Assembly: GCA_963989385.1 (NCBI GenBank) | Contig: OZ022502.1 | Span: 15,859,001 to 15,923,000 of the forward strand | Reading direction: 5' to 3' | Origin: Ctena decussata | Lineage: Eukaryota; Mollusca; Bivalvia; Lucinida; Lucinidae | DNA length: 64,000 bases | In this document: positions 30,198-63,554 of the stretch, one piece after another | How the letters are laid out: every line of letters begins with the position of its first letter | How positions within the stretch are numbered: position 1 is the first letter of the stretch | Notes under the pieces: generated by a model | The model's database searches: none | Told to the model about the DNA's origin: nothing | Seen by the model: only the letters and a program-made list of their open reading frames with translations | Translations under genes and position numbers: made by a program

Positions 30198-33100
30198 CTG
30201 CAAAACAACATTACCCGTCATGGCCCTAAATGTTCGGACAGACAGGTTTGAGCAAACATTGTAGTCCCAGATCAAACTGCTCCCAATGGAGCAGTTTGAT
30301 CAGGCTCTACAACGTTTGACATTCACTAAGCATCATTTGAATGCATTAAACTGTGTAAAATCCACTTTATAAGAATTTTCAAACAATGACTTTCTGACTT
30401 TGGGTGTCCAAAATTGTGGGTGATTACGGTAAGGTGAATAGGTACACTCTTAGGGGGAAGCAACTGTGCCTGTTTCATTTCAGCCACTATTTTCAAGGTC
30501 TACACTCAAACAAAAGAATTTGCTCCACAAATAGCAGATACTATCTTTTAAGAGTTGATTCGAATTCGAAAAGGGATTCGACCGCCATACAATCAGGAAG
30601 TAACGTTGTATGGTGCCATTACAACGCGTCAATCCACTACTGCAACATGTCGTTGTTGGAGCAGGTTCAGAAACGTTCCGTTATCTCAAAATATTAAAAA
30701 GACAGACAATCAAAGTCGTTTCTTCATAGACGTCGGCTCAGTTGATCCTAGTCACAAAATTTATCTTAACGGTACCTGTCAGCTACATTATCAACGACTT
30801 CCGCGGCGGTCACATTGTTAGCGCGAGGTTGACAGAGTACAGCGAGGCTCTGACGTCACAAATCTAGTTACCGCGACTTTAGCTGAGCGGTTTTAATACC
30901 GTTATAATTGGATCAAAAGAAATCAGTTTTTCGGCGGAATATTTTATCTGACAGTTGACCGTAACAGATTACCATCGCCTTTAGAAGGACGTTGGTTGCA
31001 GTAGATACTTGACTTGTAGTAATACCATACTATTTATAAAAACACTGGCTGCTCTTTCCTTATATTATGTTCATCTCTCTGAAATAAATATTGCGAAACG
31101 CAAACCAATATACTAATACCGATACCTTTGCAATTACCGATGATTCATTGTTATCGACAATATTCCACAACCTGCTTCTACAGGTAGCTAGTGTGTTGCC
31201 ATTCTTCACTGGAACATGAAGCGAATTTCCTGTATATATTGTTGCCTGAGCTCTTAAGACTTCCTGTCGGAATTTTTTCGACGTCTCTTGTTCGTCCAGA
31301 AAAGATATGTATCTAGAATAGACACAATAGTATAAACAACGGTTGTTTACTTGGCATTTCGACATTACAGCAGTTGTTTGAGGCTAGAATAACATAGATG
31401 ATTACCCACTTGGCACACAACGTTGATTCAACATTGAATCAACGCTGGTTCAACGTCATGACGTTGAATCAACTTTGATGCAATGTTGAGTCAATATAGT
31501 GCGCTTTCTGGGTAATATCTACATTCAATACCTATCATTAAAATTCTAAGTATATGAACAAATAGGTTATTGGTTTACACTATTTGCCATTTCGACGCAT
31601 TACTACACTGTACATAACATATAAAACGGTTCCGTCTTGGGACAGTTACAACAATAATTTAACTTTTTCCAGATTTTAGAATTTTCACGAAACATTCGAA
31701 ACCAATATGGCAATTGAATGAAAATCCAGAAAAGCTATCTTCAAACATTCATATTCTCTAGTGGATCCCCTATTCTGTTATCTTTTAAAGGGAGTTGAAA
31801 CACATCGACCTGGCCAAGATCTGTTTACGAATCAAAAGCGCAAGGCAGTCATTGAGTAAACAAGAAAATGGCCCGCAAGCGTTAGGTAAGCACGGATTTT
31901 TTTCAAGATGGCTTATAAAGGGAGGAAACCTGTAATGACGACCGTATATCGTTTGCGCAGTTCACCATTATTTTAATTTGTTTGTGTATTCTGTCCACAG
32001 AAAATGGCCTGCACAAAAGCAGGGGTCATATTTATAAAAGCACTTAAGTCATTGCTATGATGTTGCTAAGGCTTAAATTCTATAGAGGAGATTTCCTACA
32101 ACTATGAACTTTGCTCTGGAGGAATAGTCTTTTTCAGACTCTTCCTCCAGAGCAAATTTCATAGTTGTAGGGAATCTCCTTCATAGAAATTCAGCCTTAG
32201 CAACAGCATAGCAACGACTAAGTCGTTTTATAAATACAGCCCGAGGTTTCCAGAAGAACCTGTAGTGAAGCCCGTATAAACCTGCACAATGTCACATTCT
32301 GGCTGTGTATTCTGTCCATTTTGCAATCTTTTTATGGATGTTTTACGCTGCACAATTATTCTTAAAGTTGGAACTCAGCTATTTCGGGGCCCATCTTGTG
32401 AATGTCTGATGCGTTAAGAGCACGGGCTTTGTCTGCCGTTCTCCCAGGACAGTGACTTTTTGAGCATCCCCTGTCCTAACCACGCAGTATCGGTTTTAGG
32501 AAGTTCACATATAAAGAAAAAGGGGGAAACAAATTAACAAACATAATAATGAACGTAGGATATGAGCTTTAAAAATAAGAATCCGACAATCGTGGTGGTC
32601 ACGATCACCAAAATTTTGTATACCGCTGCCTATAATCGTTCAACGATGTTCCGATTCTCATAGAAAACCTTCCTAGGAAAGAATCCATGGTTACAAAATC
32701 CTGGCACAGGGCCTGTCTGTCCGTCTGTCCCCTCTCCAATTCGAAGAGGAGAGAGCGTTGGCCAACATCATGAAGATGCTTATTCGAAACGTCATTTGAA
32801 GATAAAATTGTTTATTTTTTATAAACAGAAGGTGGTATTACAGTAATATGTCACGCCTTCAAAAAATATAAAAGGTGCCCAGCGGGCACACAGATTTGAA
32901 TCAACCTTGATTCAACCTTGATTCGACGTCATGACTTTGAATCAAGGTTGATTCAAGTTTGATTCAATCTTGTGTGCCCAGTGGGTGTATTTTTATAATG
33001 GAGAATATTTTTACCGTCATTTTTATCATTTAATAAGCAGATTTAACAAGTATAAATTCGGCAATACTATCGTTTTGGCAGGCAAAATCGAAAAGTGCCC

Positions 33101-34831
33101 TTGTGACACACAAAACAGTCTCAGTATAGCGCTTTATCGAAAGAAATTTGAATTTGGTTTTATCTATGATGTTTGGAAAGGTCCAGCACGAAGTTTCTCG
33201 GAATGCTGATGGGAAGAAATCCATTTTATTTTGTATGGGTTGCCATTTTACTATTTATTCTCTATTCATTGATATCTACTATTCAAGTTTTTATATCCGA
33301 TTTATGGATATCCAATATTCATTATCATTGTATGATATCCAAATTTCGTGTTATGGATATCCAAAAAATCCAATTATGGATATCCATAAATCGAATTATG
33401 GATATCCATGAATCAAACTATGGATATGCATGAATCGAACTGTGTCTAGCCAAAAATATTTGGAAATCTCATATTATTTTTGGACATCACTTCTTCGAAT
33501 TTTGGATATCACTTGTTCGAATTTTGAATATCCAAGAAAGAATTATTGACATCCTAAAAATGAATAATGGTTATCCTAAAGAAAATGATGGCTATCTAAA
33601 TATCGGGAATATATAGAAAAAGGCGCACCTCTCGGTACTGAGTTTGTACAAAGCAATGCATAGTTTATATATACAAACTTTTAAAACTATTGTTACAGTT
33701 GGTTTCGGTTACATGAATTCGAAACAACTTATGAATTATGAAAGTTGTTCTATGCCCTGACTAAGGTCAAAATCTTTTCAAGCTTAATTCCCAGGAGTTT
33801 TCAGAATGAGAAAGCATTCAGGTAAATTCGGACAGCATGTAAATTCGGACACTGACATTATGACCTTTATATGTCATTTGCTCGGAATTAAAAAAAAAAT
33901 AACTGGGCAAACAGTGAAAATCCAGATGAGACGGCTCATAATGAGCCGTCTCATCTGGATTTTTACTGGTTGCAATGGTATGTCCGAATTTACCTGCTGT
34001 CCGAAATTACCTGATAGACCCTACTAGGCAGACAGTCTGGGGAACAAAAAGTGCCTGGACATCAGAAAATGAGTAACTTATCTTTGGACAGAACTATTAA
34101 TCAGATATTAGTAAACGTCGCCGATGGTTTTTGAAAGAATACCCGTCAGTTGTATCAATAGACTTTTTCTATTTCCATTGGTTATTATATTAAAAACAAT
34201 CAGGGAGTCCAAATTGTCCTTAATGTTCTAAGTACCACACCAAAATAATGATAATAATAATAATGCGTATGAAGGCTTTTGTTTAAAAATGTCTGCTAAA
34301 ATATCGGCGAGTTTAACCTATATTTGGTTTAAGTTATGTTTAGAAATTGTGCACTTTGCCTACACTTTTGGAAATGTTGCAATTTATTTTCTAAAACCAA
34401 TCGGTAGAGTTTGCTCCAGCAGATATGACGTCGAATGGACGTTGATGCGACGTTATGACGTCGCATCAACGTCCGTACGACGTCTTTTGGACGTCACGTA
34501 CCCGCTTGGGCTGTAGCTAGGTAACCGCGTTTGCATACCTGACCAAGCAGCATTCTGCTAACTTCTTGGAATCTATATCCCAGTAGAGTAGCTCTTTCTG
34601 GAAGGCTCCCGGGCATACACCACCCGGTATATGCAGCTCTCCGGTCTGATAGTAAGCTATTATAGCCGAGAACCTTTCTACTGGTCGATCGACGACAAAA
34701 TCCAGAGGTTTGCCATTTTTCTGCGCTTCTTTCACCATAAGCGGTAGGCGCTGGAATGGTTCTTCCTCTAAACATTTGCTGTCCAATTCAAACTGGGTAC
34801 CAGAAACTTTCAACGTCACCCTCGGCATCAT
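28938..34831 (-). CDS. Voltage-gated potassium channel (Kv, Shaw/Shab-like), three coding exons
   Basis: Joined model 34831-34539, 31312-31126, 30197-28938 gives 579 aa. A T1 tetramerisation domain (residues ~4-97) contains H67, C73, C94 and C95 in the HX5CX20CC zinc pattern of non-Shaker (Kv2-Kv4) channels. The linker has RSRLWNIVDNNESS, as expected just before S1. S1 is ~161-181, S2 ~332-351, S3 ~360-381. S4 carries R406, R409, R412, K415 and R418 at every third position, then S5, the pore with TVGYGD (477-482), and S6 ~491-520. Known role of the family: tetrameric plasma-membrane K+ channels opening on depolarisation. Odd points are an S1-S2 loop of ~150 residues with Thr-rich and Gly/Pro/Met-rich low complexity (~251-319) and an S6 hinge SLTLPIF in place of the usual LPxPxI. 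Pore and turret look Shaw-like (SIPAGWWWA); VNNF recalls Shab. Subfamily uncertain. Confidence 0.93.
30252..30318. repeat. 67-bp hairpin element, core type CTGCTCC
   Basis: Outer arms GCAAACATTGTAG and CTACAACGTTTG; core CAAACTGCTCC/GGAGCAGTTTG. Lies in Kv intron 2. Confidence 0.85.
31126..31312 (-). CDS. Kv channel exon 2 (T1-S1 linker)
   Basis: 187 bp. Acceptor TATTCTAG|A supplies the last base of an AGA codon split across intron 1 (AG from exon 1). Donor AAAG|GTATCG ends it in phase 0. It encodes 62 residues including SRLWNIVDNNESSVIAK, which matches the pre-S1 consensus of Kv channels. Confidence 0.85.
31403..31514. repeat. TTGATTCAA-type palindrome (CCCAGCGGGC family)
   Basis: Starts TACCCACTTGGCACACAACG and ends GCGCTTTCTGGGTA. 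Interior of CAACGTTGATTCAACATTGA variants mirrored around ACGTCATGACGT. Lies in Kv intron 1 beside exon 2. Confidence 0.75.
32031..32236. repeat. Long near-perfect palindrome, ~205 bp
   Basis: Outer TTTATAAAAGCACTTAAGTC mirrored by ACTAAGTCGTTTTATAAA. Inner CTACAACTATGAA...TTTGCTCTGGAGGAA mirrored by TTCCTCCAGAGCAAATTTCA. Lies in Kv intron 1. Confidence 0.85.
32878..32986. repeat. TTGATTCAA-type palindrome with GCCCAGCGGGCACA ends
   Basis: CCCAGCGGGCACACAGATT on the left is mirrored by TCTTGTGTGCCCAGTGGG. The interior consists of AATCAACCTTGATTCAA copies. Lies in Kv intron 1. Confidence 0.85.
33236..33615. repeat. GATATCCATAATTCGAATTATG motif array
   Basis: A run of degenerate copies of a palindromic unit near ATGGATATCCATAAATCGAA. 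The left flank (ACTATTTATTCTCTATTCATTGATATC) resembles the terminus of the larger array at 56025-56895. Lies in Kv intron 1. Confidence 0.8.
33907..33973. repeat. 67-bp hairpin element, core type GACGGCTCAT
   Basis: GCAAACAGTGAAAATCCAGA with a core GATGAGACGGCTCAT/ATGAGCCGTCTCATC. The right arm ends ACTGGTTGC. Lies in Kv intron 1. Confidence 0.85.
34417..34512. repeat. GACGT palindrome beside Kv exon 1 donor
   Basis: Starts CCAGCAGATATGACGTCGAA. The interior ACGTTGATGCGACGT is mirrored by ACGTCGCATCAACGT. It ends 26 bp inside the intron from the exon 1 donor. Confidence 0.75.
34539..34831 (-). CDS. Kv channel exon 1 (T1 domain)
   Basis: 97 codons plus two bases. Two adjacent ATGs (34831 and 34828); the first is taken. 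The donor is CAG|GTATGC at 34538. A splice acceptor (TTTTTGCAG, ending at 34857) lies 25 bp upstream of the ATG, so a non-coding 5' exon probably exists further right; it was not found. The short upstream ATG at 34853 is out of frame and stops quickly. Confidence 0.9.
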
Positions 34832-34970
34832 GTATGGCAATTAGTTTGCTTCATCTCTGCAAAAATACAAAAATCAAATTATGTTGAAAAAATACTTAAA
34901 TCATACAAGTATCAAATTGTATGAGAAAAAGAAGACTCGTCTTGGATGTATAGATGTTATGTTACCAGTC

Positions 34971-35303
34971 TACTGCACTGTAAAGATTTCCGTAGATTTT
35001 ACGGTAGAATAACTGGCAATCAGCTGCCAGTCCGTTTCCCGTTATTTTACGGGCGCACGTAAACATTTGCAGGACTCATCACGCAGAGTAGGGTAGAATG
35101 TGATAGTTATTGTTTGGGTCATACAGCCCTTCAATACTATGAAGGTATTACCGAGTGCGGTTAATTATCATAACCCTACCATATCGTGATTTTCACAAAT
35201 GTTCTACTGGTAGACGTCTGTAGAAATAACGGGAAATGGACTAGCAGCTGGTTGCCAGATATCTTACCGTAAAATCTACGGAATTGTTTTACAGTGTGTA
35301 GTA
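34971..35303. mobile_element. TIR element with CCGTAGATTTTACGGTA ends
   Basis: ACTGTAAAGATTTCCGTAGA and TAACTGGCAATCAGCTGCC are mirrored by GGACTAGCAGCTGG...TACCGTAAAATCTACGG...ACAGTGT. Related sequence occurs around 53466-54830. Lies upstream of the Kv T1 exon. Confidence 0.8.
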
Positions 35304-35410
35304 GAGTGATATTCTGCATCATCATTATTATAGTCTCTCTATATGCCTTTCTATATACATGTATATCGGAATTTAATCCTAATGCCTCCCTCCCCAGTCC
35401 ACACTCCCCC

Positions 35411-35520
35411 TCCCCCGTCCAAAATTTCCCTCCTCCCCCCCCCCCCTCCCCGCACACACACACACACAAATAATAATAATAACAATAATGACAATGATAA
35501 TAATAACAATAGTCTACGTA
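35411..35520. repeat. C-rich / (CA)n / AAT low-complexity tract
   Basis: A poly-C tract, ACACACACAC and AATAATAAC repeats in succession. The frames on both strands here are not credible genes. Confidence 0.85.
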
Positions 35521-36050
35521 CAACATTTCGGGTGTTAACTTGACTAAGTGGGCCAAATGCAAATTCCGATATACTTTCTCAAACCAAACTATGGAATTCA
35601 GATTTGGATGAAAACTTGGTGCAGAGTGATGCGAAACTGAAATAGCTTGCGACAGCTTTTCTAAAATTCTAAAACTTATTCCCCTGTTTTTAATAATCAA
35701 TATTTAAATAACAAATCGGAATATTGAATATAGGAATAATTTAAATTTACAGAAAACGATTAGTGAAAACCTGCCCAGAACTGATTAGTTTAGAAAGTAA
35801 TAGAACAAAAAAAAGTAAAAGAGAAAAAGCAGGCATGCGTAACTTCAAAAACTAAAAACACTGTCTAACATAATAGAAATTGATATGAGCCTTTCGTTAC
35901 GAAAGCCTGAAATATGCTTTATACCATCACACTCTTCCCAGTTCAACTGAAAGAAGTATTGAATCTTGTGGAAAATGAAAACACAATACCGAAAGGCTGA
36001 TCAGAGTCTTCGCTATTTACACATATTTCCAGTTATTTGCTCACTGCGCA

Positions 36051-37991: not shown

Positions 37992-38037
37992 TTAGTCAAA
38001 GAACTGACTGAGGTCCTATAACAGGCCCAAAGATATA

Positions 38038-41335: not shown

Positions 41336-42611
41336 TAAACCTCAGGTCAGTGTCAAATAAAAAAAAAAGATTAATCTTTTTAAAGGCAGCTTTTCGTACT
41401 CCGGTGGAATGGTTTGGATCAAGATTACTTGTTTTATAATTCATGAAAGTTTAATAATAAAACAATCAAATTCCCTCGAAGCATTTACGAAAAAATGTTT
41501 AAAATGGAAGGTGAACATGTTTCTTAAAACAATCATCTTAATTATTTGATATAACTCCATCGCCATAATAAGTTCCCTGCAGTTCATACTCATTGATTTG
41601 TAGCATTTCTTGTATTTTTAATTGCATTACTTTGTATTTGTACATATACATGTAACTTTTCGAGGACATAAAATGTATGCCATGCTCCTCTCGAAACCTG
41701 AAATGCATAGAATGGAAAGCCCGATTTTCTCAAACAAATAATTATTCTCAAGTCATTTAATTTCGTGTTCCAGTTGTTTGTTAGTCATTATCATCGTTTG
41801 TCAGATATCATCTTTTAATTCCACCTTAGCAGTTAATCAAACCAGTTTCAGAGTATGAAAATGCAAGGCAGAAAATTAATCAGCTTGGCACATGCATCCA
41901 CCCATCCCCCCCCCCCCCCCACACACACACACACATACACACCTTTTTTTCACACTGACCTTTATTTCATTGCCTTATGACTGACAATCGAGCTGTCAAC
42001 ATTTAAGTCAACCCATTTCCAAAGTACTAATTTCGCAACATTGCACTGATAATAATATCATTTCGACCAAGTATTTTAGCAAAACAACGTCTTCGTGAAA
42101 TATTGCGAAATAAAACTTCTGCGAATATTTCCCGACTAACTGTACACACATAATTGTAAAAAAAAAACAAAAAAAAAAAACTAGAACATCAAAAAATAAT
42201 TACCGTATTGTCCTAAAACGTCTCAAAGTTGCAGATGGAATGAAAAACAGTGTTGACCCTGATCAGACTGTCCTTAGGAGCAGCCTGCTCCGTGTCTACT
42301 CTGTTTTCTCAGACCTGTCTGTCCCAATATTTTGTAAGTTTTACGGTATTAAATAAGTTACAAAAATTACAAAATAATTTGCAGGAAACCCTGACCAGAT
42401 TTAAAATGTGTTATTAAATTCAAATAAGGTAAAACAAAAGAAATCACGTACAAATGACAAAAATGAAAATAATAATAAGAATTAGCCTCTTACCCTTATC
42501 AGGACAAATTTGCCAGTAATTTACAGCGACCAGGTTACATGATAATTATCACTTACAATTAAAACATGTTAAATTCTGCTAATTCCTAAATATTGGGACT
42601 GAAATCCATGC
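41336..42611. other. No recognisable gene
   Basis: AT-rich. Contains a poly-C/(AC)n tract (about 41908-41935), an A-rich tract near 42160, and a degenerate copy of the 67-bp hairpin near 42247-42315. Confidence 0.45.
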
Positions 42612-42678
42612 GCAAGCAGTGTAGACCCAGATCAGACTGCTCCTCAGGAGCAGTCTGACCAGGGTCTACACTGTTAGC
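42612..42678. repeat. 67-bp hairpin element, core type CTGCTCC
   Basis: GCAAGCAGTGTAGACCCAGA / TCAGACTGCTCC-TCA-GGAGCAGTCTGA / CCAGGGTCTACACTGTTAGC. Confidence 0.9.
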
Positions 42679-43176: not shown

Positions 43177-43403
43177 TGAGCCGCGACACGAGAAAACCAA
43201 CAATGTGGTTATGCGCCCAGCGCAGACTCAGATCAGCCTGGGCATCCGCCCAGCCTGATCAGAGTCTTCGCTGTCCGCATGCGGAGGTAGCTTAGACCCT
43301 GAGCTACCCTGAAGAGTCTGATCAGACTTGGCGGATGCCCAGGCTGATCTGAGTCTGCGCTGGGCACACAACCACATTGTTGGTTTTCTCGTGTCGCGGC
43401 TCA
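43177..43403. mobile_element. GAGCCGCGAC palindromic element
   Basis: TTGAGCCGCGACACGAGAAA to CTCGTGTCGCGGCTCA, arms well conserved, short central deletion. Confidence 0.9.
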
Positions 43404-44215: not shown

Positions 44216-44421
44216 CGGCGTCCGGTCCGTATGGTAAAACCTGAAATTGCTTACAGTGGAAACCAATTTTCGTCAGTTTGAGCTTTAACACATGGTAAAT
44301 AAGCCTTTTAAGTTTTAAGTCAGCGCTTTGCCCTTTTTATGGAATTTCCGCTCGCTAGTTTTAATGTTATGCTTAGCTTTGAATGAGTTGAGGATTTCCA
44401 TTCAGAGCGACCTCCCTTTAA

Positions 44422-44755
44422 CACAGGGTATAATCGATTCCGCCAATTTTCGCTTCCTGCAGAGACTGTCCGTCATATTTGGCTTCCGCCGAGACTGTCC
44501 GCGAACTCTTGCTTCCTGCAGAGACTACTGTCCTCGAGAAATGGCTTCCTGCCGAGACTGTCCGCGTGACTCTGCTTCCTGCCGAGAGCCTCGGCAGGAA
44601 GCAGAATCACGCGGACAGTCTCTGCAGGAAGCCATTTATCATGTACAGAAGTCTCGGCAGGAAGCAAGAGTTCGCGGACAGTCTCGGTGGAAGCCAGATA
44701 TGATGTACAGTCTCTGCAGGAAGCGAAAATTGGCGGAATCGATTATACCCTGTGT
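44422..44755. mobile_element. Palindromic TIR element with TTAA flanks
   Basis: CACAGGGTATAATCGATTCC is inverted exactly at the right end, with TTAA at 44418-44421 and 44756-44759. The interior arms are built from GCTTCCTGC(C/A)GAGACTGTCC units pointing towards a centre at about 44590. TTAA target duplication is typical of piggyBac-like elements. No transposase. The apparent frames are repeat translations. Confidence 0.88.
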
Positions 44756-44855
44756 TTAAGAAGTTAATTTTACTGCAAAATTCTAAGTATTGGGGAAGAT
44801 AGGTGTGAGCAACAGTTCAGATCCAGATCAGACTCTGACCAAGGTCTACATTGTT

Positions 44856-45420
44856 TGCCATATCATCTGCATTTTAGACACATTCTTGCATTGTAAAGAC
44901 AAACTATTCCATTTTTTGACAATTACTCGATGCCAGGATCAGGTGTGGCCTTTACCTTCTGGAGAATATGGTTTTAAGAACTGGGCGCAAGTAAGCATAA
45001 ATAGGATGAAACATAAAACAAAATATCGGTTTCTATATAATCATATATCATATTACCTGCGAAATATTTTCATTCAACAGACATCAAAATGGCATTTTTG
45101 ACAAAACATGGTCACAACAATAACATCTGCTCAAAGCCGATGTATCACGGCTAGCTCTTTCAAATGGCGCCGTCAGTGGAAACCAGTGGCGGCCGCCAAC
45201 CAGTGGTCTCACAATCGCAAGGCCGTAAAGGCTGATACCTTGCTTTGTGAATAAAACACAACATATCGTATTAATCCTATTAAACGCCCCAGGGGCGTTG
45301 CATTTTACAAAAGGGTGGGCGTTAGTTAGAGCCTAAAATGTAGTAAATTAGCTACTGCCAAATACCTCTAATCACAATATTAAGATGAGTGGGTATACTA
45401 GCAGAGGAAACAACTCTCCT
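44856..45420. other. No recognisable gene
   Basis: A degenerate hairpin-family remnant lies near 44807-44862; the rest shows nothing recognisable. Confidence 0.4.
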
Positions 45421-45979: not shown

Positions 45980-46217
45980 TGAGCCGCGACACAACAAAAC
46001 CAAAAAAGTGGTTGTGCGCCCAGCGCAGACTCAGATCAGCCTGGGCATTCGCCTAGTCTGAACAGAGTCTTCGCTGTCCGCATGGAGGTAGATTAAAACC
46101 TTAGCTAGCCTTTATGCGCTTAGCGAAGGGTGTGATCAGACTGGGCGGATGCCCAGGCTGACCTGAGTCTACGCTGGGCGCACGACCACTTTGTTGTTTT
46201 TTTCGTCTCGCGGCTCA
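45980..46217. mobile_element. GAGCCGCGAC palindromic element
   Basis: TGAGCCGCGACACAACAAAA to TTCGTCTCGCGGCTCA, full-length. Confidence 0.9.
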
Positions 46218-48379: not shown

Positions 48380-48720
48380 ATGAGCCGCCTCACGAGAAAC
48401 TATCCTTGTGGCAAGTGCAAACGATGGAGACAACAAGGCCCGGAGGTTATAAAGCTTGAGTACATTCTCAAACTCAAAATAAAGCACACTGATTGGCTGC
48501 TTCCGAGCAGCCAATCAGTGTGTTTTATTTTGAGTTTGAGATTATACTCAAGTTTTATAACCTCGGACCCAGATTGTGCATTCGCATAGATTGACTTTAA
48601 TCTTCGTCTTCCACAAGATCCATAGAGATTCTTGTCGCAAAAAGGAAGACTCAGATCAGCATGTACGGATGCACAGGGTGATCTGAGTCTTCGCTGTTTG
48701 CATAGGTCGTAAGGTCCCCT
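48380..48720. mobile_element. Fragmented GAGCCGCGAC element split by a palindrome
   Basis: Left scrap TGAGCCGCCTCACGAGAAAC and a right portion with CAGATCAGCATG...GTGATCTGAGTCTTCGCTG, separated by the palindrome at 48438-48571. Confidence 0.55.
48438..48571. repeat. Near-perfect 134-bp palindrome
   Basis: GGCCCGGAGGTTATAAAGCT mirrored by AGTTTTATAACCTCGGACC. The centre is CACTGATTGGCTGCTTCCGAGCAGCCAATCAGTG. Confidence 0.88.
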
Positions 48721-55500: not shown

Positions 55501-58500
55501 GAATATTGCCATAAATATTCTATGTATTAGGAAAGACAGTTTTGAGCACACAGCGCAAACACAATTCAGCCTGCTAAGGGTTTACACTGTTTGTCATTCC
55601 ATCTGCGGCAGCTTTATTTTCACTCGCATTTGAATTTGCTGTGTAAAGATTCTGATCTAGAAATAAATTGTCTTTTGATAATGCTACCGGACAATGCCTT
55701 TGCAGTTTGGGTAATGTAAAAAATTAACTGGTCTGAAAGAGACGGCAACAAAATTAGAGGCAGTTAAATGTCCAGGTATATCGGTAAGGATAGCTCCATA
55801 CTGATCCAAGGACCTTTAAGTCTAAAGGCCCTCAGGCTATCCGGCCCAATGTGCCTGGATCGCGACACCATACGTGCACTTAATAGATAAATATACTATG
55901 AACCTGATTGATTCGTTCGAGAGCTTCTTCTTCGGGATCGGCTTTTATTCCATAATTCTTTGGAGCTGAAAAAGGAGTCGATCAGGTTTAACTACGAAAA
56001 CAAAAAGATGTTCATACATATGGGGTGCAGTTTTCTGTTTATTCCCTATTAATAGATATCCATTATTTGATCAATGGATGTCCGAATATGTGGTGTCCAT
56101 AATTCAGCTCATTTATTGATGTCATAAATTCGAATAACTGATATTGAAAAAGAGATATCACAATTTCGATTGATGTATAGCTATAACTGAGTCCGATTTA
56201 TGGATATCACTAAATCGAGTCACGTATTGATTTCATTAATACGAATTTTGGATATCCTTAAATGGAATGTTTATCTATAAATGGTTTGAATATCGATATC
56301 CTTAATACGATTTGTGGATATCCCTAATTTGAATGTGATATCAATAAATCGGGCCGAATTATTGATAATTATAATTCGAATTATCGATATCCATAAATCA
56401 ACACAGAGCAGTCGTCTTTTTAAAACTTATCATTGCAGACATAAATTATTGATATCCATAATTCTAATTAGTGATGTCCTTAATTCGGTCGAATTGTTGA
56501 TATCCATAATTTGAAATATGGATATCACTAATTCGAATAATGGTTATCTAATAATCTAAATAATTAACTGATATTACTTATTCAAATGACGGATATCACA
56601 TTCGAATTATGGATGTCACTACTTCGACTTCGATATCCATAAATGGGCAGAATTATGGATATCCATATTTGAATTATGGATAACCATAAACCAAATCAGT
56701 GATATCCATAAATCATTCAGATTATTGGATATCCATAATTCGAATTGTGGACAAATCGAATTATGGATATCCATAATTTGACTTTTGACTTATGGATATC
56801 ACTTATTCGAATTATGGATATCACTTTTTCGAATTTTTGATATCCACAAATAATTATGGCTATTGATAAATAAGGAATAAATAGTAAAACGGACTCAAAC
56901 ACACGCCATATTGAACTTAGACTAGAAACTGGATTAAGAGTCTCTGATAAAAATCAGCATGGGTTCTACAGGGCTCGCAACAGATAAACAATTTTATTCT
57001 CCTGCATTCTGAGACGACCAAATTTGATCTAAAACTTGACATTAACCCATTGTTGACTAATGGATTTGTCTATCCGTATCATTTGGATGAGTCCATTTCT
57101 AGTTTTAGGGGTTTCTGGTGACTGTTTTCAATTTAATTGTATTTTGCATAAAAATTCCAGAAAACAAACAGTGATGAACCTGATCAGACGCGAACCTGAT
57201 CAGACGCCGCGTTCTGCGGCGTCTGATCTGGGTCCGCACTGTTTGCTTATGTCCCCAAAACGGGTTTCCAGTCTGAAAAGGGTTAAACGTTTTGGAATTT
57301 GACAAGTTTAACAAATGATATGTCGAACTCTGGAGTTGAGACTTCAAATAAGATCTTAGGTTGTAGTGCTGCGGTATCATATACCAAGCAATTTGATGCA
57401 GATCTTCGCGCATCCATATATGAGCCGCGACACGAGCAAACCAACAATGTGGTTGTGCGCCCAGCGCAAACTTAGATCAGACTGGGCATCCGCCCAGTCT
57501 GATCAGCGTCTTCGCTGTCCGCACAGAGGTAGCTTAGAACCTTAGCTACCCTTTAAGCGCTTAGCGGAGAGTCTGATCAGACTGGGTGGATACCCAGGCT
57601 GATCTAAGTCTGTGCTGGGCGCATAACCACTTTGTTGGTTTTCTCGTGTCGCGGCTCATATATAGTCGTACATGTAAATTTACTTTCCATATACAACCAT
57701 TATACTTATCTTGTCAATGAAAATACTATCCCTCTATCTTACAAACGCGGAAGTTAGACATGCTGTCTGAAGTAAAAAAAAAAAATGTACATTTTGGTGT
57801 TGCGTTTATTTATAGCTTTAAAATAATAATGTAAACACTATTTCAAATATTAGTACCGTTTCGGTTATATAGTGCAGAAGGTCTTGAGTTCGAATTCCGG
57901 CTTGGGTCAACTGGCGGCTGGAAAACTCTCTCTGTGTCAACCCTGCAGTAAATGGGTACCTTTTTTGAATCAGGGAAGGATACGGCAGCGAAAGGAGAGG
58001 GAATGGGCTCCGCCTTTCATATGCTGTGCCCAAGAAACAGAGCGCCTCTAGCCCCCACTGCCCCTATGGCCACTAGGCTATAAGAAACCTTTACCTTTAC
58101 TATAGTTTCCACAGTCTGAAATCTGCTCAAGGCGATTAAAACTCGTTTCATTGAGAAATACCAAAAACCTGCATTGTGGAGCCGAGATTGCCAACCCATG
58201 TATGATGATTCATATATATTTCAATCAAAGAAAAGGCAAAAAAATTACATTGGCTTGTTACCCACAATCCTTTAGGTGGTTCATCGCCCATGTTTTTGTT
58301 TTTCAGTATTTGTATCGTGTATCCCGTTTAGACCAAAGTTCTATTTTGCTAAAAAATACATGCACTACCTAAAGGTAATTAATATAAAGTTGCATTTTGA
58401 CCATATCAGGATACAAGAAAATTGAGCCGCGGCGACACAACAAAACCAACATATGCACCAGGATTAAGATCAGCCTGTGCATCCGCTCAGTCTAATCAGA

Positions 58501-61076
58501 GTCTTTGATGTCTGCATGGAGGTAGCTAGACCCCTAGCTACCCTAGGCTGATCTGATTCTTTGCTTGGCGTATATACCACTTTGTTGGGTTTTCGTTCGT
58601 TTCGTTCGTTCGTGAGTGAGTGAGTGAGTTAGTGATTGATCGAGTGAGTGAACTCGGGGTTAACGTCCCACTACCAACTAGGTCATACATGTATGGAGAC
58701 AGGACCTCGGCTTAAACTCTGATCCGAATGACCGGAGGAGCGGGGAATCGATCTTGCCACCCCTGGATTGGTAGTCCAGCGCGTTATCCACACACTACCG
58801 CCGCTCCTTCGCGTTTTCGTGTCGCGGCTCAATTGTGCTTGATCCCATGTGCGAACAGCCAATATATCAAAGCCTTCCCTGTTTTCAGCAGCTATAATAG
58901 ATTCGGAGGAGCCTTCACTAACCGCTCCGGGCTACCAATCCAGGGGTCGCAAGTTCGATCCCCCGCTTCTCCGGTCTTTCAGATGAGACTTTAAACCGAG
59001 GTCCCGTCTCCATATGACCTCGTTGTTGGTGGGACGTTAAACCCGAGTTCACTCACTCACTTCACTAACCGAATGAAATAAGTAGAAACTGCTTAATCTA
59101 TGCACCTCGTAGTGATGTTTTCACTTTCTGCATGCACGGTAGACATCGCGATATTATTTTGGGATATCAAGATAATATCTTGTTTCCTGAAGAAAATTTC
59201 TTGATACCTCAAGACAGTGTACTGCTAATCAAGATAATATCTTGTTTCATCAAGAAGACAATTTCTTGTTCCCTTGCGACATTTACAGTTCCTTCAAGAT
59301 AATATCTTTTTCATCAAGACAATTTCTTGTTCCTTGTTTTACACTAGGGTACACTAGGGTCGAGTCGGGTAAATTCAGACAGCGGGTAAATTCGGACATA
59401 CCATTGCAAACAGGGAAAATCCAGATGAGACGGCTCATAATGATCAGGATTTTCACTGTTTGCCTAATTAATTTTGTTATAATACCAAACAGCTGACATA
59501 TAAAGAGGAAAATGTCACTGTCCGAATTTACCTGCTGTCCGAATTTACCTGACTTGACCCTACCGCGTCCTCTCCCATTTTCCAAAGGGGGACAATTTCG
59601 TGACTATATTTCCAAAGGGGTGTTCTCTTACAGGAAATAATTCCTTTTTGGGGAGCAAATTTTCCTTTAAGGGTCGACCACCACATTTTTTTTTCTTTTA
59701 GAGTTGACCACCACTGTAAAGAGCAGCTAAAAATGGAATGTATTAGAGCTGTTTCTCCTGAAAGTGTACCGATACACGTTAAGACTTTAAGATATATTAA
59801 AGGAGCAAGATATAATATCCTGTGGGCACAAGATATTATCTTTGGGCAACAAATTATTATCATGTGCTGCAAGATAATTATATTGTTCGTTAAAGATAGT
59901 ATGCTGACACCTCAACATATACTGTTCACAAAAAGTAGGGGATATCAAGATATCAAAAATTGTATAAATCAGAAAAAATAACAAATCCACATCAGTGAAA
60001 CGGCAAGTGTCCATCAGACAAATATTCGATAAAACATGTTGCATTACAACTTTGATGGTATATCGTGTCACGTGATCTGCGTTTAATTCTTTTTAGACAG
60101 GGGCCGACACCCAATGCACCTGTGCGATTTTTGTTTTCTGGTTTTCTTCCCAAAATGACCGTTTTGAAGAGGAAAAATATCTTTTAGCATACAAAACTTA
60201 AAAATGCATTGAAAGGTAAGCTTAGTTGAATAATATGAATGAATTTTTGTTCGAATTTACCACATTTTTGTCCTGACCCCCTGTTTGAAACTAACTATAT
60301 GCAGATCACGTGACAAGATATATGTCTTATCGATACTAAGCGTTGCCTATGGATATCACATTTGTTGTAGATGCTACAATTGTTCAAACCTGAATATCCC
60401 CTACTTTTTGTGAACAGAATATAATACAGAAATTTCATAACCCTCCATAGTAAATCAGAAGCCCCGGTAGATTAAGCGCTGGCCTACTGATCTAGCGGTA
60501 CCGGGTTCGAGCCCCGCTGAAGGCGGGAATCTTTTCAATCGTAAACGGGGTTCCATTGCACACAGCCTTCCCTTATCACCCACCCATCGTCCTGTTAGAA
60601 AGGACGTAAAATCGCAAGTCATCCATCTATTCCATAGTAAATCGAGTACCCACTAAGTTTGCAGTATCAGTATCAAAACGAACACAGTTCCCGGACAAGC
60701 AAAGCCCTACTCATTGGTTTCGCTATCACATAAAACAAAATACCCTTGTAAAATCACAAGCCATCCATCCATTCTATAGTAAATCGAGTACCCACTCAGT
60801 TTGCAGTATCAGTATCAAAACGAACACAGTTCCCGGACAAGCAAAGCCCTACTCACTGGTTTCGCTATCAAATAAAACAAAATATCCTTGTAAAATCACA
60901 AGCCATCCATCCATTCTATAGTAAATCGAGTACCCACTAAGTTTGCACACAGTCCCCGGACAAGTAACACCATATTCATTGGTTTCGCTATAAAAATAAA
61001 ACAAAATACCCTTGTTTAGTTCCCAAGCAGATTCCGTCCCACCATTTTCTGGTTCAGCATCCATATTTTCTGCCAT
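48787..61076 (-). CDS. AIF1: Allograft inflammatory factor 1 (AIF-1 / Iba1), six coding exons
   Basis: Joining 61076-61010, 55965-55904, 55116-55050, 51437-51396, 50129-49967 and 48871-48787 gives a 161-aa protein with every splice phase consistent. Signature stretches are [38 protein letters not shown] and [14 protein letters not shown]. The first EF-hand loop (residues 72-83) has Asp at positions 1, 3, 5 and Gly at 6 but Gly instead of an acidic residue at 12; the second loop (108-119) is degenerate. Known of the family: a cytosolic calcium-responsive actin-binding and bundling protein of phagocytic immune cells, used in invertebrates by haemocytes and in wound repair. Length is slightly above vertebrate AIF-1 because of an acidic N-terminal leader ([13 protein letters not shown]). 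Introns range from ~0.8 to ~5 kb and are full of mobile elements. Promoter and poly-A site were not identified. Confidence 0.96.
48872..49966. other. AIF-1 intron 5
   Basis: No other coding sequence. Contains an imperfect inverted repeat around 49545-49755 (CAAAGCATCGTTAGCCGAAC ... AACTAACGAAGTCGTTAG and CACATTTTTTCAACAAAAA). Confidence 0.5.
49967..50129 (-). CDS. AIF1: AIF-1 exon 5 (rest of EF-hand 1, EF-hand 2)
   Basis: 163 bp: acceptor TTCGTTTCAG|AT, donor AAATT|GTAAGT. Encodes 53 full codons including [19 protein letters not shown] and [14 protein letters not shown]. Confidence 0.96.
50171..50356. repeat. Imperfect palindrome, ~185 bp, in AIF-1 intron 4
   Basis: AGATAAGAGGCAGTATTTGG and TGATAATTAGGGATAATTTT are mirrored by ATTATCCTTAATTATCATCA and AAATACTCCCTCTATCT. 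The centre is CATATGTTGTGACCC...GGGTCACAACATATG. A half-copy lies near 61690-61780. Confidence 0.85.
50540..51330 (+). repeat. Degenerate ~150-bp tandem repeat in AIF-1 intron 4
   Basis: Five units each with TCTCTGCACATCGTCTGATG, TGCTTTACATTTGTA, AAGTTTCGTGAAAATATC and GAGTTATGGAGCGGACA. The end reads CGGACGGACAGACGAACTGA followed by CCTCCGCAGACTTCG...GCGGGGCC. Typical of a dispersed invertebrate tandem-bearing element. Confidence 0.8.
51396..51437 (-). CDS. AIF1: AIF-1 exon 4 (start of EF-hand 1)
   Basis: Only 42 bp: acceptor TTTCTTCCAG|CC, coding [13 protein letters not shown], donor ATAG|GTAAGG. The split Asp codon is completed by AT of exon 5. Confidence 0.93.
   Translation of the reverse strand, partial: PSFWSLTKMTTEI
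51438..53390. other. AIF-1 intron 3, part without a defined element
   Basis: No coding exon recognised. Contains (CT)n microsatellites at about 52531-52558 and 52660-52682. These are embedded in a direct duplication of TAAAACGGTAA(A/T)GGATAATATA and AGTCCGAGCTCATGAC-like sequence (52376-52690). Confidence 0.5.
53391..55013. mobile_element. TIR element with GGTACC motif ends and nested insertions
   Basis: GTCATACTAAATAC on the left is inverted as GTATTTAGTATGAC on the right. Both ends are filled with CAAGGTACCGCGAGG / CCTTGCGGTACCTTG variants. Between about 53466 and 54830 lies a second element related to 34971-35303 (CCGTAGATTTTACGGCA ... CTACTGTAAAATCTACGG). That one has an inner inverted pair near 53505 and 54440 (GGAGCGTACAGTACATGTG type) and a SINE. 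Confidence 0.75.
54635..54801 (+). mobile_element. tRNA-derived SINE, 15-bp target duplication
   Basis: CTACTGTAAAATCTA at 54620-54634 and 54802-54816. Head GGAGCGGCTGTAGTGTAGTG, tail TTCACTCACTCACTCA. Inserted in the nested TIR element. Confidence 0.93.
55050..55116 (-). CDS. AIF1: AIF-1 exon 3
   Basis: Acceptor TTTTTTTTTCAG|GAG. Encodes [20 protein letters not shown] and YK plus a split Ala. Donor AAAG|GTAAGAG. A TIR element ends only 36 bp beyond the donor. Confidence 0.93.
55904..55965 (-). CDS. AIF1: AIF-1 exon 2
   Basis: Acceptor CCTTTTTCAG|CT at 55966. Encodes [20 protein letters not shown]. Donor CAG|GTTCAT is a weak but canonical GT. The next exon opens in phase 0. Confidence 0.9.
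56025..56895. mobile_element. GATATCCATAATTCGAATTATG motif-filled element in AIF-1 intron 1
   Basis: Left TTTTCTGTTTATTCCCTATT and right AATAAGGAATAAATAGTAAAAC are inverted ends. Between them are dozens of degenerate copies of a palindromic unit near ATGGATATCCATAATTCGAATT. A smaller array with a similar left flank lies at 33236-33615. Confidence 0.82.
57164..57246. repeat. Hairpin element, core type GACGCCGCG, with partial duplication
   Basis: AAACAGTGATGAACCTGATC, duplicated GAACCTGATCAGACG, core GACGCCGCGTTCTGCGGCGTC, right arm GGGTCCGCACTGTTTGC. Confidence 0.88.
57421..57658. mobile_element. GAGCCGCGAC palindromic element
   Basis: TGAGCCGCGACACGAGCAAA to TTTTCTCGTGTCGCGGCTCA, full-length, in AIF-1 intron 1. 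Confidence 0.92.
57850..58100 (+). mobile_element. SINE-like element with CAGTAAATGGGTACC body
   Basis: B-box-like GAGTTCGAATTCC at about 57887, body CAGTAAATGGGTACC...GCCTTTCATATGCTGTGCCC, terminal CCTTTACCTTTAC. A relative lies at 13538-13715. Target duplication not resolved. Confidence 0.65.
58423..58831. mobile_element. GAGCCGCGAC palindromic element interrupted by a SINE
   Basis: TGAGCCGCGGCGACACAACA on the left and GTTTTCGTGTCGCGGCTCA on the right; the SINE splits the right arm at TTGTTGGGTTTTCG. Confidence 0.85.
58590..58808 (-). mobile_element. tRNA-derived SINE inside the palindromic element
   Basis: Reads leftwards: head ending ...GCCGCTCC at about 58807, tail GAACTCGGGGTTAACGTCCC, then GTGAGTGAGTGAGTGAGTT. 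Diverged relative to the other copies; target duplication ambiguous because the flanks are TTCG-rich. Confidence 0.8.
58925..59059 (+). mobile_element. 5'-truncated SINE, 12-bp target duplication
   Basis: CTTCACTAACCG at 58913-58924 and 59060-59071. Starts inside the tRNA-like head (CTCCGGGCTACCAATCCAGG) and runs to the TCAC tail. Confidence 0.9.
59150..59340. repeat. CAAGATAATATCTTG motif cluster
   Basis: Repeated AAGATAATATCTTGTTTC and TTCTTGAT-type palindromic units. Similar motifs recur at about 59800-59950, adjacent to GATATTATC. Probably parts of one motif-filled element. Confidence 0.6.
59405..59463. repeat. Hairpin element, core type GACGGCTCAT, shortened
   Basis: GCAAACAGGGAAAATCCAGA, TGAGACGGCTCATAATGA, then CAGGATTTTCACTGTTTGC. 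The second half of the core has been lost. Confidence 0.8.
59570..59755. repeat. TTGCCTCCCTTCT hairpin family, diverged copy
   Basis: TTCCAAAGGGG repeats, then AGGAAATAATTCC...GGGGAGCAAATTTTCCTTTAAG and TTTTCTTTTAGAGTTGACC. Weak match. Confidence 0.4.
60457..60631 (+). mobile_element. tRNA-derived SINE of a third type, 12-bp target duplication
   Basis: CCATAGTAAATC at 60445-60456 and 60632-60643. Head GCCCCGGTAGATTAAGCGCT, B box GGGTTCGAGCCCC, tail AGGACGTAAAATCGCAAGTC then CATCCATCTATT. Different head and tail from the TCAC-tailed SINEs. Confidence 0.88.
60605..61015. repeat. 142-bp tandem repeat including the AIF-1 exon 1 donor
   Basis: The phrase AGTAAATCGAGTACCCACT starts at 60636, 60778 and 60920, an exact 142-bp period. 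Each unit ends in AAAATACCCTTG, the AIF-1 exon 1 / intron 1 junction read on the plus strand. Units also carry the 3' end of the neighbouring SINE (AAAATCACAAGCCATCCATC), so duplication followed SINE insertion. The third unit has lost about 20 bp. Confidence 0.9.
61010..61076 (-). CDS. AIF1: AIF-1 exon 1
   Basis: ATG at 61076, 22 codons plus G. Donor AACAAGG|GTATTTTG at 61009. The remaining G joins CT of exon 2 to give Ala. The last bases of this exon and the donor are repeated twice further left in a 142-bp tandem array. Confidence 0.9.
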
Positions 61077-61195
61077 GATTACAAACTGTCAAAACTTTTT
61101 GTCTCGTGGATTCACAATAGATCCGTACAAGGATACAAGGAAATAGGGCAGTATATTAACGGAATTACCCAAAATATTAGGGCAAAAGTGTCCGA

Positions 61196-61262
61196 GCAAA
61201 CAGTGAAGACCCAGATCAGACTGCTCCTAAGGAGCAGTCTGATCAGGGTCTTCACTATTTGC
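61196..61262. repeat. 67-bp hairpin element, core type CTGCTCC, upstream of AIF-1
   Basis: GCAAACAGTGAAGACCCAGA / CTGCTCCTAAGGAGCAG / GGGTCTTCACTATTTGC. Lies about 120 bp upstream of the AIF-1 ATG. Confidence 0.92.
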
Positions 61263-62431
61263 CAATCCGCTTTGCTATTTTGTCACATCGCTAGATAATA
61301 AGGCCAATGTTTTAATCAAAATTTTAGAATAACAACAGCGATTATGTAGATTGCTGTCCCAATAAGTCGGATACTTATGGTAAATGTTATTCCGGAAAAA
61401 TGTAAGTGTATTTGAAGAGGGTTAAATTGGTTGATATTGTTCTTTAAAGCATATCACGAGATCATTATAATTAAGGATTGCATACACAATTCGTCTTTTG
61501 TGCAATCCATTGGAGCCCAAACTGCAACGACGCTGTCCAGGCTGCGTATGCCCTCAGTTTGGTCAAAGTTCTGGACTTCCGAGAAATCTGTTCAGACTGC
61601 AGTTATGTAGCCCTATTTGGTTGCTTCGTCGCATTTTTATCGGAGGGGTATAAACGATGATTCAAAGATAATTTCTCGACGAGACGGTTCTAATGAGGGG
61701 TCACAACATACGTTAAATGCACAAATGTGAAAAAATTATCCCTTAATTATCCCTGCTACCCCTTCTGTTCTGTTCTGTTCTTATCTGGAGCACAGCAAGT
61801 TATGATGAAAGTGCATGTGCTTAGAAAGTCAAATAAACAAGAAAGTCTCTCCTCCTTGTGGTCCCATTTGTATTTTCTCATTATTTCATAGTTTCCTTAG
61901 CAGGACACCTACTTACATGATCATTGTCTTTGCGAAAGCGGATTTTCGCGTGAAGGCAATTAATAGTTTGTGCATTTGGTTTAAACACTATTTTATTCAG
62001 GAATAAGTTTACAACATAATAGACATACAACAAATAGATCAGGATTTGAAAGTAAGCTTAAAGCTTATATATATCATCTCCTGTAATTTGTGCATTTAAG
62101 CCCATGTCCATCAGTTTTTAACGTTACCAGGCACCAAAGGCACGTGGAGGCAACGCCATGCATTTAAAGTCCGTCTTTCGCCTGTATATGTATGTAAATA
62201 TGTAATGAGGAAGTTGGTTAAAAATAATGCACCCAATAAGGCAAAGTCTCACAGTGTAGGAACGGCAAAGCAACGCTGGGAATATCCCCAAACTGTGGTA
62301 AGGGCACTGGGTATGGGAGACAATACAAAAAGGTACTTCCCTTCTGCAAGGATGGATTAAAACTCTTGTTTGCAGTCGAACAACAAAGACGAGGATCAAA
62401 CTCATTTCCTAAAGCTTGCTTCACAAGTATG
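61263..62431. other. No recognisable gene
   Basis: Short frames (61478-61660, 61815-62006) show no recognisable domain. Contains a half-copy of the GGGGTCACAACATA palindrome near 61690-61780. Confidence 0.4.
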
Positions 62432-62907
62432 TATGGTGGCTGGTTTGTGCCATTTCGTCTTTTCGTCTTTTCGCCGCGAAAAGACGCCACGCGAAAAGAC
62501 GAAAAGACGAAAAGACGCCATGCGAAAAGACGAAAAGACGAAAAAACGCCAGGCGAAAAGACGAAAAGACGAAATAACGCCAGGCGAAAAGACGAAAAGA
62601 CGCCAGGCGAAAAGACGAAAAGACGAAAAAACGCCACGCGAAAAGACGACAATTTAAGAGTTTCAAATGGCGTCTTTTCGCATGGCGTTTTTTCGTCTTT
62701 TCGCGCTGCAATTTCGTCTTTTCGCGTGGCGGGTTTCGTCTTTTCGTCTTTTCGCCTGGCGTTATTTCGTTTTTTCGTCTTTTCGCCTGGCGTCTTTTCG
62801 TCTTTTCGTCTTTTCGCATGGCGTCTTTTCGTCTTTTCGTCTTTTCGCGTGGCGTCTTTTCGCGGCGAAAAGACGAAAAGACGAAATGGCACAAACCAGC
62901 CACCATA
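62432..62907. mobile_element. Foldback element made of GAAAAGACG minisatellite arms
   Basis: TATGGTGGCTGGTTTGTGCC is inverted exactly at the right end; direct AGTATG at 62426-62431 and 62908-62913. The left arm is GACGAAAAGACGAAAAGACGCCA(C/G)GC units and the right arm is their reverse complement, meeting near 62660 in a short spacer (TTTAAGAGTTTC). Long frames on both strands (up to 297 codons) are translations of the repeat. Confidence 0.93.
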
Positions 62908-63062
62908 AGTATGCCACAGGGAAGTAAAACAACGGAAAAAAATATTTGTCTCCTGAAACTTTAACCGTTCAAGCGCAAATAAAGCAGACAAAAAAAAAAT
63001 ACGTCTGCAAAATGTCAAAAATCTTTCATCCAAGCGATCATATTGAAAAACTGAAGACTGGT

Positions 63063-63130
63063 GCCGAACGGTGTAGATCCAGATGAGGCGGCTCATTATG
63101 AGCCGCCTCATCAGGATTTATGCTGTTTGC
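63063..63130. repeat. 67-bp hairpin element, core type GGCGGCTCAT
   Basis: GTGTAGATCCAGATGAGG with a GCGGCTCATTATGAGCCGC core and CAGGATTTATGCTGTTTGC right arm. Confidence 0.9.
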
Positions 63131-63487
63131 TTTTATGTTTTGTTTTTAGCGGCGCCATCATTAGGATAGATGCCTCCTTGCATGTGACTCTGGTCAGCCT
63201 GCGTATGCAAGCAGACTGATCAGAGTCTTTACTCCATAAAATATCCTTTAATACTGAGAAAAGTGTATCGAACTGCAACGGCTCTGGTCAGACAGCGCGG
63301 ATGATCTAAGTCTTCGCTGTTGGCCCATGTCGCTGCCTACATGACCCTAACACGTCAATAACATTTTGCGGTGCATGTTGCAAATATTTTTACACAAATT
63401 ATTTCAGTACAATGTAGTAGCTATAGTGGCGGGTGGATGTTTTCCTTTTTATTGTACGCCCAATTTTGAATACTGAAATACCTGTAA
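63131..63487. other. No gene; degenerate palindrome remnants
   Basis: Contains GGTCAGCCTGCGTATGC, GACTGATCAGAGTC and GATCTAAGTCTTCGCTG, which look like a diverged GAGCCGCGAC-type element without termini. Confidence 0.4.
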
Positions 63488-63554
63488 GCAAACAGTGTAG
63501 ACCCTGATCAGACGCCGCGTTCTGCGGCGTCTGAACTGGGTCTGCACTGTTTGC
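63488..63554. repeat. 67-bp hairpin element, core type GACGCCGCG
   Basis: GCAAACAGTGTAGACCCTGA / GACGCCGCGTTCTGCGGCGTC / GGGTCTGCACTGTTTGC. Near-perfect stem. Confidence 0.94.

What the first reader, a model, noticed from the sequence alone, without database searches (positions are those of the whole stretch)
30252..63554. 67-bp hairpin family whose cores differ but remain self-complementary
Eight copies share outer arms near GCAAACAGTGTAGACCC(A/T)GATCAGA and GGGTCTACACTGTTTGC, yet have three unrelated cores: CTGCTCC-GGAGCAG (30252, 42612, 61196), GACGGCTCAT-ATGAGCCGTC (33907, 59405, 63063) and GACGCCGCG-CGGCGTC (57164, 63488). Core changes are compensated on both sides, so the stem is preserved while the sequence changes. 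That pattern fits selection for hairpin structure, or a copying mechanism that regenerates one arm from the other (template switching, or hairpin-end processing).
Basis: partly seen in the sequence, partly recalled or inferred. Interest (0 to 1): 0.75.

Follow-up and report, generated by a model that had tools for sequence, protein, structure and literature searches.

The report
Shared hairpin inside clam mini-transposons
The repeated 67-base hairpins are one conserved folding module carried by several different families of tiny mobile DNA elements in a clam genome; the families have changed letters on both sides so that the hairpin still folds, which suggests that the shape helps these elements spread.

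Summary
The hairpins are real, but the finding needs re-reading. The host is a bivalve (inferred). Core types belong to separate MITE families with their own ends: M-A (TA duplication), M-B and M-C (TTAA), F2 (4 bp), M-D (ends not settled). The cores are homologous, not unrelated. M-A and M-D consensus hairpins differ at five of 31 pairs, all changed on both sides; other contrasts are 33-71% compensated. At pair 22, paired places outnumber broken ones 28,958 to at most 680. Individual copies show no such protection: 237 one-sided private changes, 14 two-sided (10.3 expected); G.T 59, A.C 58. So pairing is kept in source lineages, not in inserted copies, without sign of RNA wobble. The hairpin is more conserved than its flanks, strongly in M-D and M-C, weakly in M-A and M-B. 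In four families it starts 35-49 bp inside an end. Best reading: a shared subterminal DNA structure needed for mobilisation. Arm copying in active lineages remains open. About 168,000 places keep intact inner arms. The autonomous-partner search did not complete.

The parts
30252..30319 (+). hairpin, M-D class (CTGCTCC core)
   Evidence: flanks shared with 42612, 61196 and 42243
33818..34021 (-). M-A MITE, far end short by about 8 bp, with hairpin 33907-33973 (GACGGCTCAT core)
   Evidence: TA at the intact end
42243..42308 (-). hairpin, M-D class, with the best-kept M-D flanks
   Evidence: possible TA|CCGTAA...ACGG|TA ends in this one copy
42612..42678 (+). hairpin, M-D class
44809..44858 (+). 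M-D hairpin with the core deleted
55546..55594 (+). M-D-like hairpin with the core deleted (flank score 33, just under the cut of 34)
57164..57246 (-). M-C-type hairpin (GCCGC core) with a 16-bp duplication; M-C right part matched at 57046-57119
   Evidence: flank score itself below the cut
59357..59560 (+). M-A MITE with both ends and TA on both sides; hairpin 59406-59463 partly deleted
61196..61262 (+). hairpin, M-D class, two mismatches in the stem (one of them A.A)
62965..63130 (+). M-B MITE, left part 62965-63049, hairpin 63064-63130 (GGCGGCTCAT core)
   Evidence: flank score below the cut
63488..63554 (-). hairpin with GCCGC core; M-C by core and by flank similarity to 57164 (flank score itself below the cut)
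6050..6285 (.). F2 MITE, one hairpin at each end (6085-6150, 6185-6250), 4-bp target-site duplication
43178..43402 (.). F2 MITE, hairpins 43213-43278 and 43304-43367, 4-bp target-site duplication
45981..46216 (.). F2 MITE, hairpins 46016-46081 and 46116-46181 (no exact 4-bp duplication)
57422..57657 (.). F2 MITE, hairpins 57457-57522 and 57557-57622, ATAT duplication
48637..48701 (-). related hairpin inside a small element with CCACAAGAT / ATCTTGTGG ends
   Evidence: ends read by eye

Best explanation
The hairpin is a 66-67 bp subterminal module of non-autonomous DNA transposons (MITEs). At least five MITE families with different ends carry it, just inside a terminal inverted repeat where the ends are known; in F2 it sits inside both ends. 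It acts in cis at the DNA level: the palindrome, extruded as a hairpin or cruciform or bound as paired half-sites by a dimeric protein, helps the element to be mobilised. Elements that lose the palindrome do not found new families, so only source lineages that restored pairing after a mutation spread. This gives both-sided changes between families, while inserted copies decay freely. Modules (or ends) have been exchanged between elements with different target-site duplications. SHOWN: module, families, compensation between families, unprotected decay within families, conservation edge at the hairpin. INFERRED: the need for mobilisation, the form that is recognised, the exchange.
For: Flanks predict the core class: of 155 hairpins tested 100 were assigned by flanks, and by eye none of the 100 carries another family's core (L088 mixes one base; four have the core deleted). 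Consensus hairpins: M-A against M-D 5 of 5 differing pairs compensated, chance of five left and five right differences coinciding 6e-6 for this best of 15 contrasts. Swapping arms among the 100 listed copies lowers pairing of the 7 core pairs from 0.86 to 0.65 (maximum 0.70 in 1000 shuffles). Pair 22: 7,600 C-G, 21,358 G-C, at most 680 broken. Outer arms not used in picking copies are more alike than the adjoining 30 bp: M-D 0.74/0.71 against 0.35/0.29, M-C 0.78/0.79 against 0.61/0.39, M-B 0.82/0.81 against 0.69/0.59, M-A 0.91/0.88 against 0.76/0.75, random 30-mers 0.24; ungapped 6-bp blocks agree, with a large step in M-D and M-C and a small one in M-A and M-B. 19 of 20 M-A elements picked by flank only have the module or a remnant. 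No flank match in the loci held then crosses the site without it. Start of the hairpin from the element end: F2 35, M-B 35, M-C 36, M-A 49 bp (counted on consensuses). M-B's hairpin is nearer to M-A's (5-6 pair differences) than to M-C's (9-10), although M-B and M-C share TTAA and M-A has TA.
Against: No mobilisation assay and no transposase was linked: the search for piggyBac transposases (PF13843) did not complete (last try). F2, the most numerous family, has five consensus mismatches, M-C three, so perfect pairing is not required. Between consensuses one-sided changes are common too, for example 2 of 3 differing pairs in MBb against MBc. In MBc the pair-18 asymmetry is mostly lost (A.A in 1 of 11). 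Five of 20 flank-picked M-A copies have central deletions, so the structure is not kept after insertion. M-A is as near to M-D (5 pair differences) as to MBb (5), so the case for exchange rests on M-B against M-C. Founder effects in few source elements could mimic selection. The contrasts are few and not independent. The copies of the conservation test were picked for intact inner arms, which may favour young hairpins, though not their outer arms.
Confidence: 0.5

Rival explanations
1. Arm regeneration without selection: during replication or gap repair of the mobile copies one arm templates the other (quasipalindrome template switching), so any mutation is either erased or copied to both sides in lineages that go on to amplify.
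For: Template switching is known to homogenise inverted-repeat arms and to invert spacers (PMC8604942, passages read). Of 13 compensated pair positions between families 6 are double transversions, close to the share among raw private changes (117 transitions, 120 transversions), as expected if the mutation is simply copied. One of 17 flank-oriented M-C copies (L034) has an inverted spacer (by eye).
Against: Asymmetries survive: A.A at pair 18 in 18 of 19 M-A, 13 of 17 M-C, 20 of 23 F2, and four more in the F2 consensus. Private changes show no clear arm copying (14 two-sided against 10.3 expected). It does not explain why the module is more conserved than its flanks.
Confidence: 0.25
2. The module is itself a tiny palindromic mobile element that inserted independently into the founders of several MITE families.
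For: Different flanks in each family with an edge at the first and last base of the hairpin; the same module in at least five families.
Against: No duplication beside the hairpin was seen by eye in the family consensuses. M-D copies with weakly matching flanks mostly still look like M-D by eye, so no solo insertion into unique DNA was demonstrated; 55 of 155 hairpins stayed unassigned, though. No hairpin-less copy of M-A, M-B or M-C was found among the loci held, and 1 of 20 flank-picked M-A places lacks it. The hairpin start is 35-49 bp from an end in four families.
Confidence: 0.12
3. The hairpin works as RNA (structured transcript, small-RNA precursor or terminator), and pairing is kept by selection on the RNA.
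For: Very stable predicted fold of a single strand for seven copies (DNA parameters, -25 to -36 kcal/mol, z -7 to -15); covariation. In nine M-A copies G.T 12 against A.C 8.
Against: On the oriented strand G.T and A.C are equal (59 and 58; 49 and 63 in F2). Inherited one-sided consensus changes are T.G at two pairs (M-B), C.A at two (M-C), C.C and C.T in F2. No Rfam family but a distant tRNA matches in the window at gathering score. No RNA data here.
Confidence: 0.08
4. Ordinary founder effect: each MITE family started from a near-perfect palindrome and nothing maintains it.
For: Copies decay freely.
Against: Consensus hairpins keep homologous arms with a shared asymmetry, which points to descent from one hairpin and not to separate new palindromes. 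Coinciding both-sided changes between them exceed chance.
Confidence: 0.05

Closest known systems
MITEs (miniature inverted-repeat transposable elements); they take up a considerable part of bivalve genomes (PMC10294476, passages read)
   Same: Short, non-coding, terminal inverted repeats, target-site duplications, very high copy number
   Different: A homologous 66-67 bp hairpin is shared across families with different ends and duplications
piggyBac-type ends (palindromes bound by two cysteine-rich domains of a transposase dimer; PMC11707139, passages read)
   Same: M-B and M-C have TTAA flanks, CYC / CCC tips and a subterminal palindrome near one end
   Different: Palindrome of 67 bp instead of 19 bp; also present in elements with TA and 4-bp duplications; no transposase linked here
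Helitrons and Helentrons (hairpin near the 3' end; recalled)
   Same: A hairpin near an element end
   Different: These elements have terminal inverted repeats and target-site duplications
Made1 / hsa-mir-548 palindromic MITE hairpins (PMC1784062, start of abstract seen in the listing; element details recalled)
   Same: Palindromic MITE hairpin of similar size
   Different: There the palindrome is the whole element (recalled); here it is a module inside larger MITEs, and no wobble bias is seen
Bacterial REP palindromes (PMC2817692, listing)
   Same: Small palindrome families in large numbers
   Different: Different domain of life and different carriers

Membership tests
MITE | terminal inverted repeats | tested here: met
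   M-A, M-B, M-C, F2 consensus ends; M-D weak
MITE | target-site duplications | tested here: met
   exact on both sides, counted by eye: TA in 11 of 21 M-A, TTAA in 8 of 23 M-B and 5 of 17 M-C (the rest decayed, truncated or misregistered); F2 4 bp exact in 7 of 17 end pairings, two pairings spurious; M-D one copy only, inconclusive
MITE | short and non-coding, very high copy number | tested here: met
   about 145-240 bp; 167,949 places with exact inner arms; no coding test beyond the length
MITE | mobilised by an autonomous partner | not tested
   transposase search did not complete
piggyBac superfamily (M-B, M-C only) | TTAA duplication and CCY-like tip (rule recalled) | tested here: met
   with decayed copies among them; for M-B the tip is CYC
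piggyBac superfamily (M-B, M-C only) | DDE transposase with cysteine-rich domain in an autonomous copy | not tested
   search not answered
Helitron | no terminal inverted repeats and no target-site duplication (recalled) | tested here: not met
structured RNA family | match to a known RNA family | tested here: not met
   only a tRNA at 28169-28241 at gathering score
structured RNA family | wobble excess on one strand | tested here: not met
   G.T 59, A.C 58

The most novel reading that the evidence does not exclude
A transferable cis-acting DNA hairpin serves transposons with different ends and target-site duplications, and so presumably different transposases, in one animal genome: a structural 'licence to move' that is swapped between element families and kept by both-sided base changes in source lineages only.
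Probability: 0.33. Interest if true: 0.75.

Novelty: new variant of a known kind. Interest (0 to 1): 0.58.

Why it matters
If the reading holds, a folded DNA structure, and not only the terminal repeats, decides which small transposons succeed, and it can be exchanged between families with different ends. That would help to explain why a few MITE designs fill this bivalve genome, and it gives a natural data set of some 10^5 copies in which selection on source elements can be separated from decay of inserted copies.

Tried and rejected
Rejected: three unrelated core elements sharing arms by coincidence (cores are homologous). RNA-level selection on copies (no wobble bias). Ongoing arm homogenisation in inserted copies. 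Tried without result: IMG/VR scans for three hairpin patterns, 0 matches each; phage records; full-text search for hairpin, end or flank letters, 0 papers. Literature searches on bivalve MITEs, hairpins and subterminal structures: among the titles listed (20 of 98, 20 of 32, 5, 4, 6, 0) I saw none that describes such a module. Repbase and most subscription journals are not held, so this does not show that it is unpublished. The naming of F2 as Sola2-like is recalled and was not tested. A first arm-pattern script was wrong (one base left out) and was redone.

Biases and drops: M-D copies in the consensus were mostly oriented by the A.A pair itself, and 7 M-D copies without it were set aside, so M-D says nothing on pair 18. 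The random-flank null was drawn from the window and contains true copies; the cut of 34 was its 99% point. In one search variants present in more than two copies of a family were left out by design, and only hairpins of length 67 (66 in F2) were used. In one search only copies of length 67 with 30 bp of flank on both sides were used. L021-L100 were picked for exact inner arms; searches list only the first places of contigs C1 or C1-C2. Some of the 680 broken places belong to other repeats (control 24). The 20 places are the first of the list, skipping five that were already held. In one search a 41-bp fragment of an M-A end (L001 3993-4033) could not be judged.

Full report
WHERE WE ARE. The window lies in a 1.658-Gb assembly of 245 contigs, C5:15859001-15923000. 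A potassium-channel frame (28938-30275, minus; Ion_trans) has its best named relatives in Mercenaria, Dreissena and Mya, so the host is probably a heterodont bivalve (their grouping is recalled); the best hit of all (76%) is unnamed.

THE OBSERVATION. The arms are present and far above chance. A covariance model of 32 copies (A1) finds 75 distinct places in 264 kb at E 0.01: 32 in the window and 43 in 200 kb taken at fixed round-number positions on nine contigs. By extrapolation that is about 356,000 genome-wide. Places with exact inner arms number 7,600 (GATCAG-N19-CTGATC, control 34), 21,358 (GATGAG-N19-CTCATC, control 12) and 138,991 (GATCAG-N18-CTGATC, control 18). Two of the eight listed copies are damaged (59405, 57164) and one is assigned a slightly wrong core (63063).

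CORE TYPES ARE MITE FAMILIES. Copies picked by their inner arms were fetched with flanks and, with the unpicked ones, assigned by flanks only. Of 155 hairpins 100 passed the cut: F2 33, M-B 23, M-A 21, M-C 17, M-D 6; 55 did not, many of them M-D by core. By eye none of the 100 has another family's core (L088, in M-B, mixes one base of the M-A core; four have the core deleted). Consensus elements and ends:

- M-A: TA|GGG...CCC|TA, about 213 bp.

- M-B: TTAA|CYCTTTAA...TTAAAGRG|TTAA, about 203 bp.

- M-C: TTAA|CCCATTAA...TTAATGGG|TTAA, about 235 bp.

- F2: GAGCCGCGACACGAG..., about 236 bp, a hairpin at each end; 4-bp duplication exact in 7 of 17 end pairings, of which two are spurious.

- M-D: ends seen in one copy only.

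The hairpin starts 35 (F2), 35 (M-B), 36 (M-C) and 49 bp (M-A) inside an end, and about 37 bp in M-D if its ends are right. Further contexts exist (L039, L014:2023, L040, window 48637).

COMPENSATION BETWEEN FAMILIES. Consensus hairpins compared pair by pair, compensated of differing pairs: MA-MD 5 of 5; MA-MC 5 of 7; MBc-MD 5 of 7; MA-F2 9 of 13; MA-MBc 4 of 6; MBb-MD 4 of 6; MA-MBb 3 of 5; MC-MD 3 of 5; MBc-MC 6 of 10; MBc-F2 8 of 14; MBb-MC 5 of 9; MD-F2 5 of 9; MC-F2 6 of 11; MBb-F2 7 of 13; MBb-MBc 1 of 3. In each the number exceeds the coincidences expected (0.1 to 5.0). Chance that five left and five right differences fall on the same five of 31 pairs, as in the best contrast, is 6e-6. 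Swapping arms among the 100 listed copies lowers pairing of the seven core pairs from 0.86 to 0.65, maximum 0.70; within the two lists alone 0.84 against 0.63 and 0.89 against 0.79. At pair 22, 28,958 places are paired and at most 680 are broken. Over 13 compensated positions, 7 are double transitions and 6 double transversions.

NO PROTECTION WITHIN FAMILIES. Private changes at paired positions: 237 one-sided, 14 two-sided (8 of them paired) against 10.3 expected; G.T 59, A.C 58, other 120; transitions 117, transversions 120. By family, M-D has more two-sided ones than expected (6 against 2.6), M-C fewer (1 against 2.4). F2 alone, 44 copies chosen by core and counting inherited variants too: G.T 49, A.C 63, other 86; 36 two-sided against 17.1 expected, an excess that may reflect subfamilies. 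Nine full-length M-A copies picked by flank: 24 one-sided (G.T 12, A.C 8), 0 two-sided. Inserted copies therefore seem to decay like plain DNA, and an RNA function of each copy is unlikely.

CONSERVATION AND ASYMMETRY. Outer arms, not used for picking, are more alike between copies than the adjoining 30 bp in all four families tested (M-D 17, M-C 16, M-B 20, M-A 18 copies), with a step already in the first 6 bp that is large for M-D and M-C and small for M-A and M-B (for M-A on the right 0.83 against 0.78). A consensus A.A mismatch at pair 18 is kept in 18 of 19 M-A, 6 of 9 MBb, 13 of 17 M-C and 20 of 23 F2 copies, but in 1 of 11 MBc. In duplex DNA this is only a difference between the two arms; it gives the module a direction and points to common descent. 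It speaks against free arm copying.

WHAT IT DOES. 19 of 20 M-A elements picked by flank only carry the module or an internally deleted remnant (five central deletions); among the flank matches of M-A, M-B and M-C in the loci then held none crosses the site without it. The most economical reading is that the palindrome is needed by elements that spread. Precedent: piggyBac ends contain palindromes bound by a transposase dimer (PMC11707139, passages). But the module also sits in elements with TA and 4-bp duplications, and M-B's hairpin is nearer to that of M-A (TA) than to that of M-C (TTAA, like M-B), so modules or ends may have been exchanged; M-A is, however, equally near to M-D. Whether a cruciform or a pair of half-sites is recognised cannot be told from sequence. 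Arm copying in the active lineages (PMC8604942, passages) remains the main rival; the mutation-like transversion share and one inverted spacer (L034) speak for it.

LIMITS. The transposase search did not complete. There were no RNA data and no other bivalve genome to search. The consensus contrasts are few and not independent.

Noticed in passing
window 44416-44760: 345-bp near-perfect palindrome (arms 171 nt, 92% complementary, 3-nt centre) with internal 30-bp tandem units.
   Followed up: no
window 62432-62907: Inverted block of CGAAAAGACG-type units of about 31 bp, arms 171 nt, 99% complementary, 134 nt apart.
   Followed up: no
window 33334-33600 and 56225-56844: 22-bp GATATCC-rich tandem repeats at two places of the window.
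   Followed up: no
window 14485-16218 and 23875-25557: Tandem arrays with 264-bp (6.4 copies) and 450-bp (3.7 copies) units.
   Followed up: no
window 28938-30275: Kv-type potassium channel frame on the minus strand; the mechanical open frame runs into the 30252 hairpin.
   Followed up: partly
L101, L111, L112, L114, L119: Central deletions in M-A hairpins, 5 of 20 flank-picked copies: signs of palindrome instability.
   Followed up: partly
L034 397-463: M-C hairpin with its 5-base spacer inverted relative to the flanks.
   Followed up: partly
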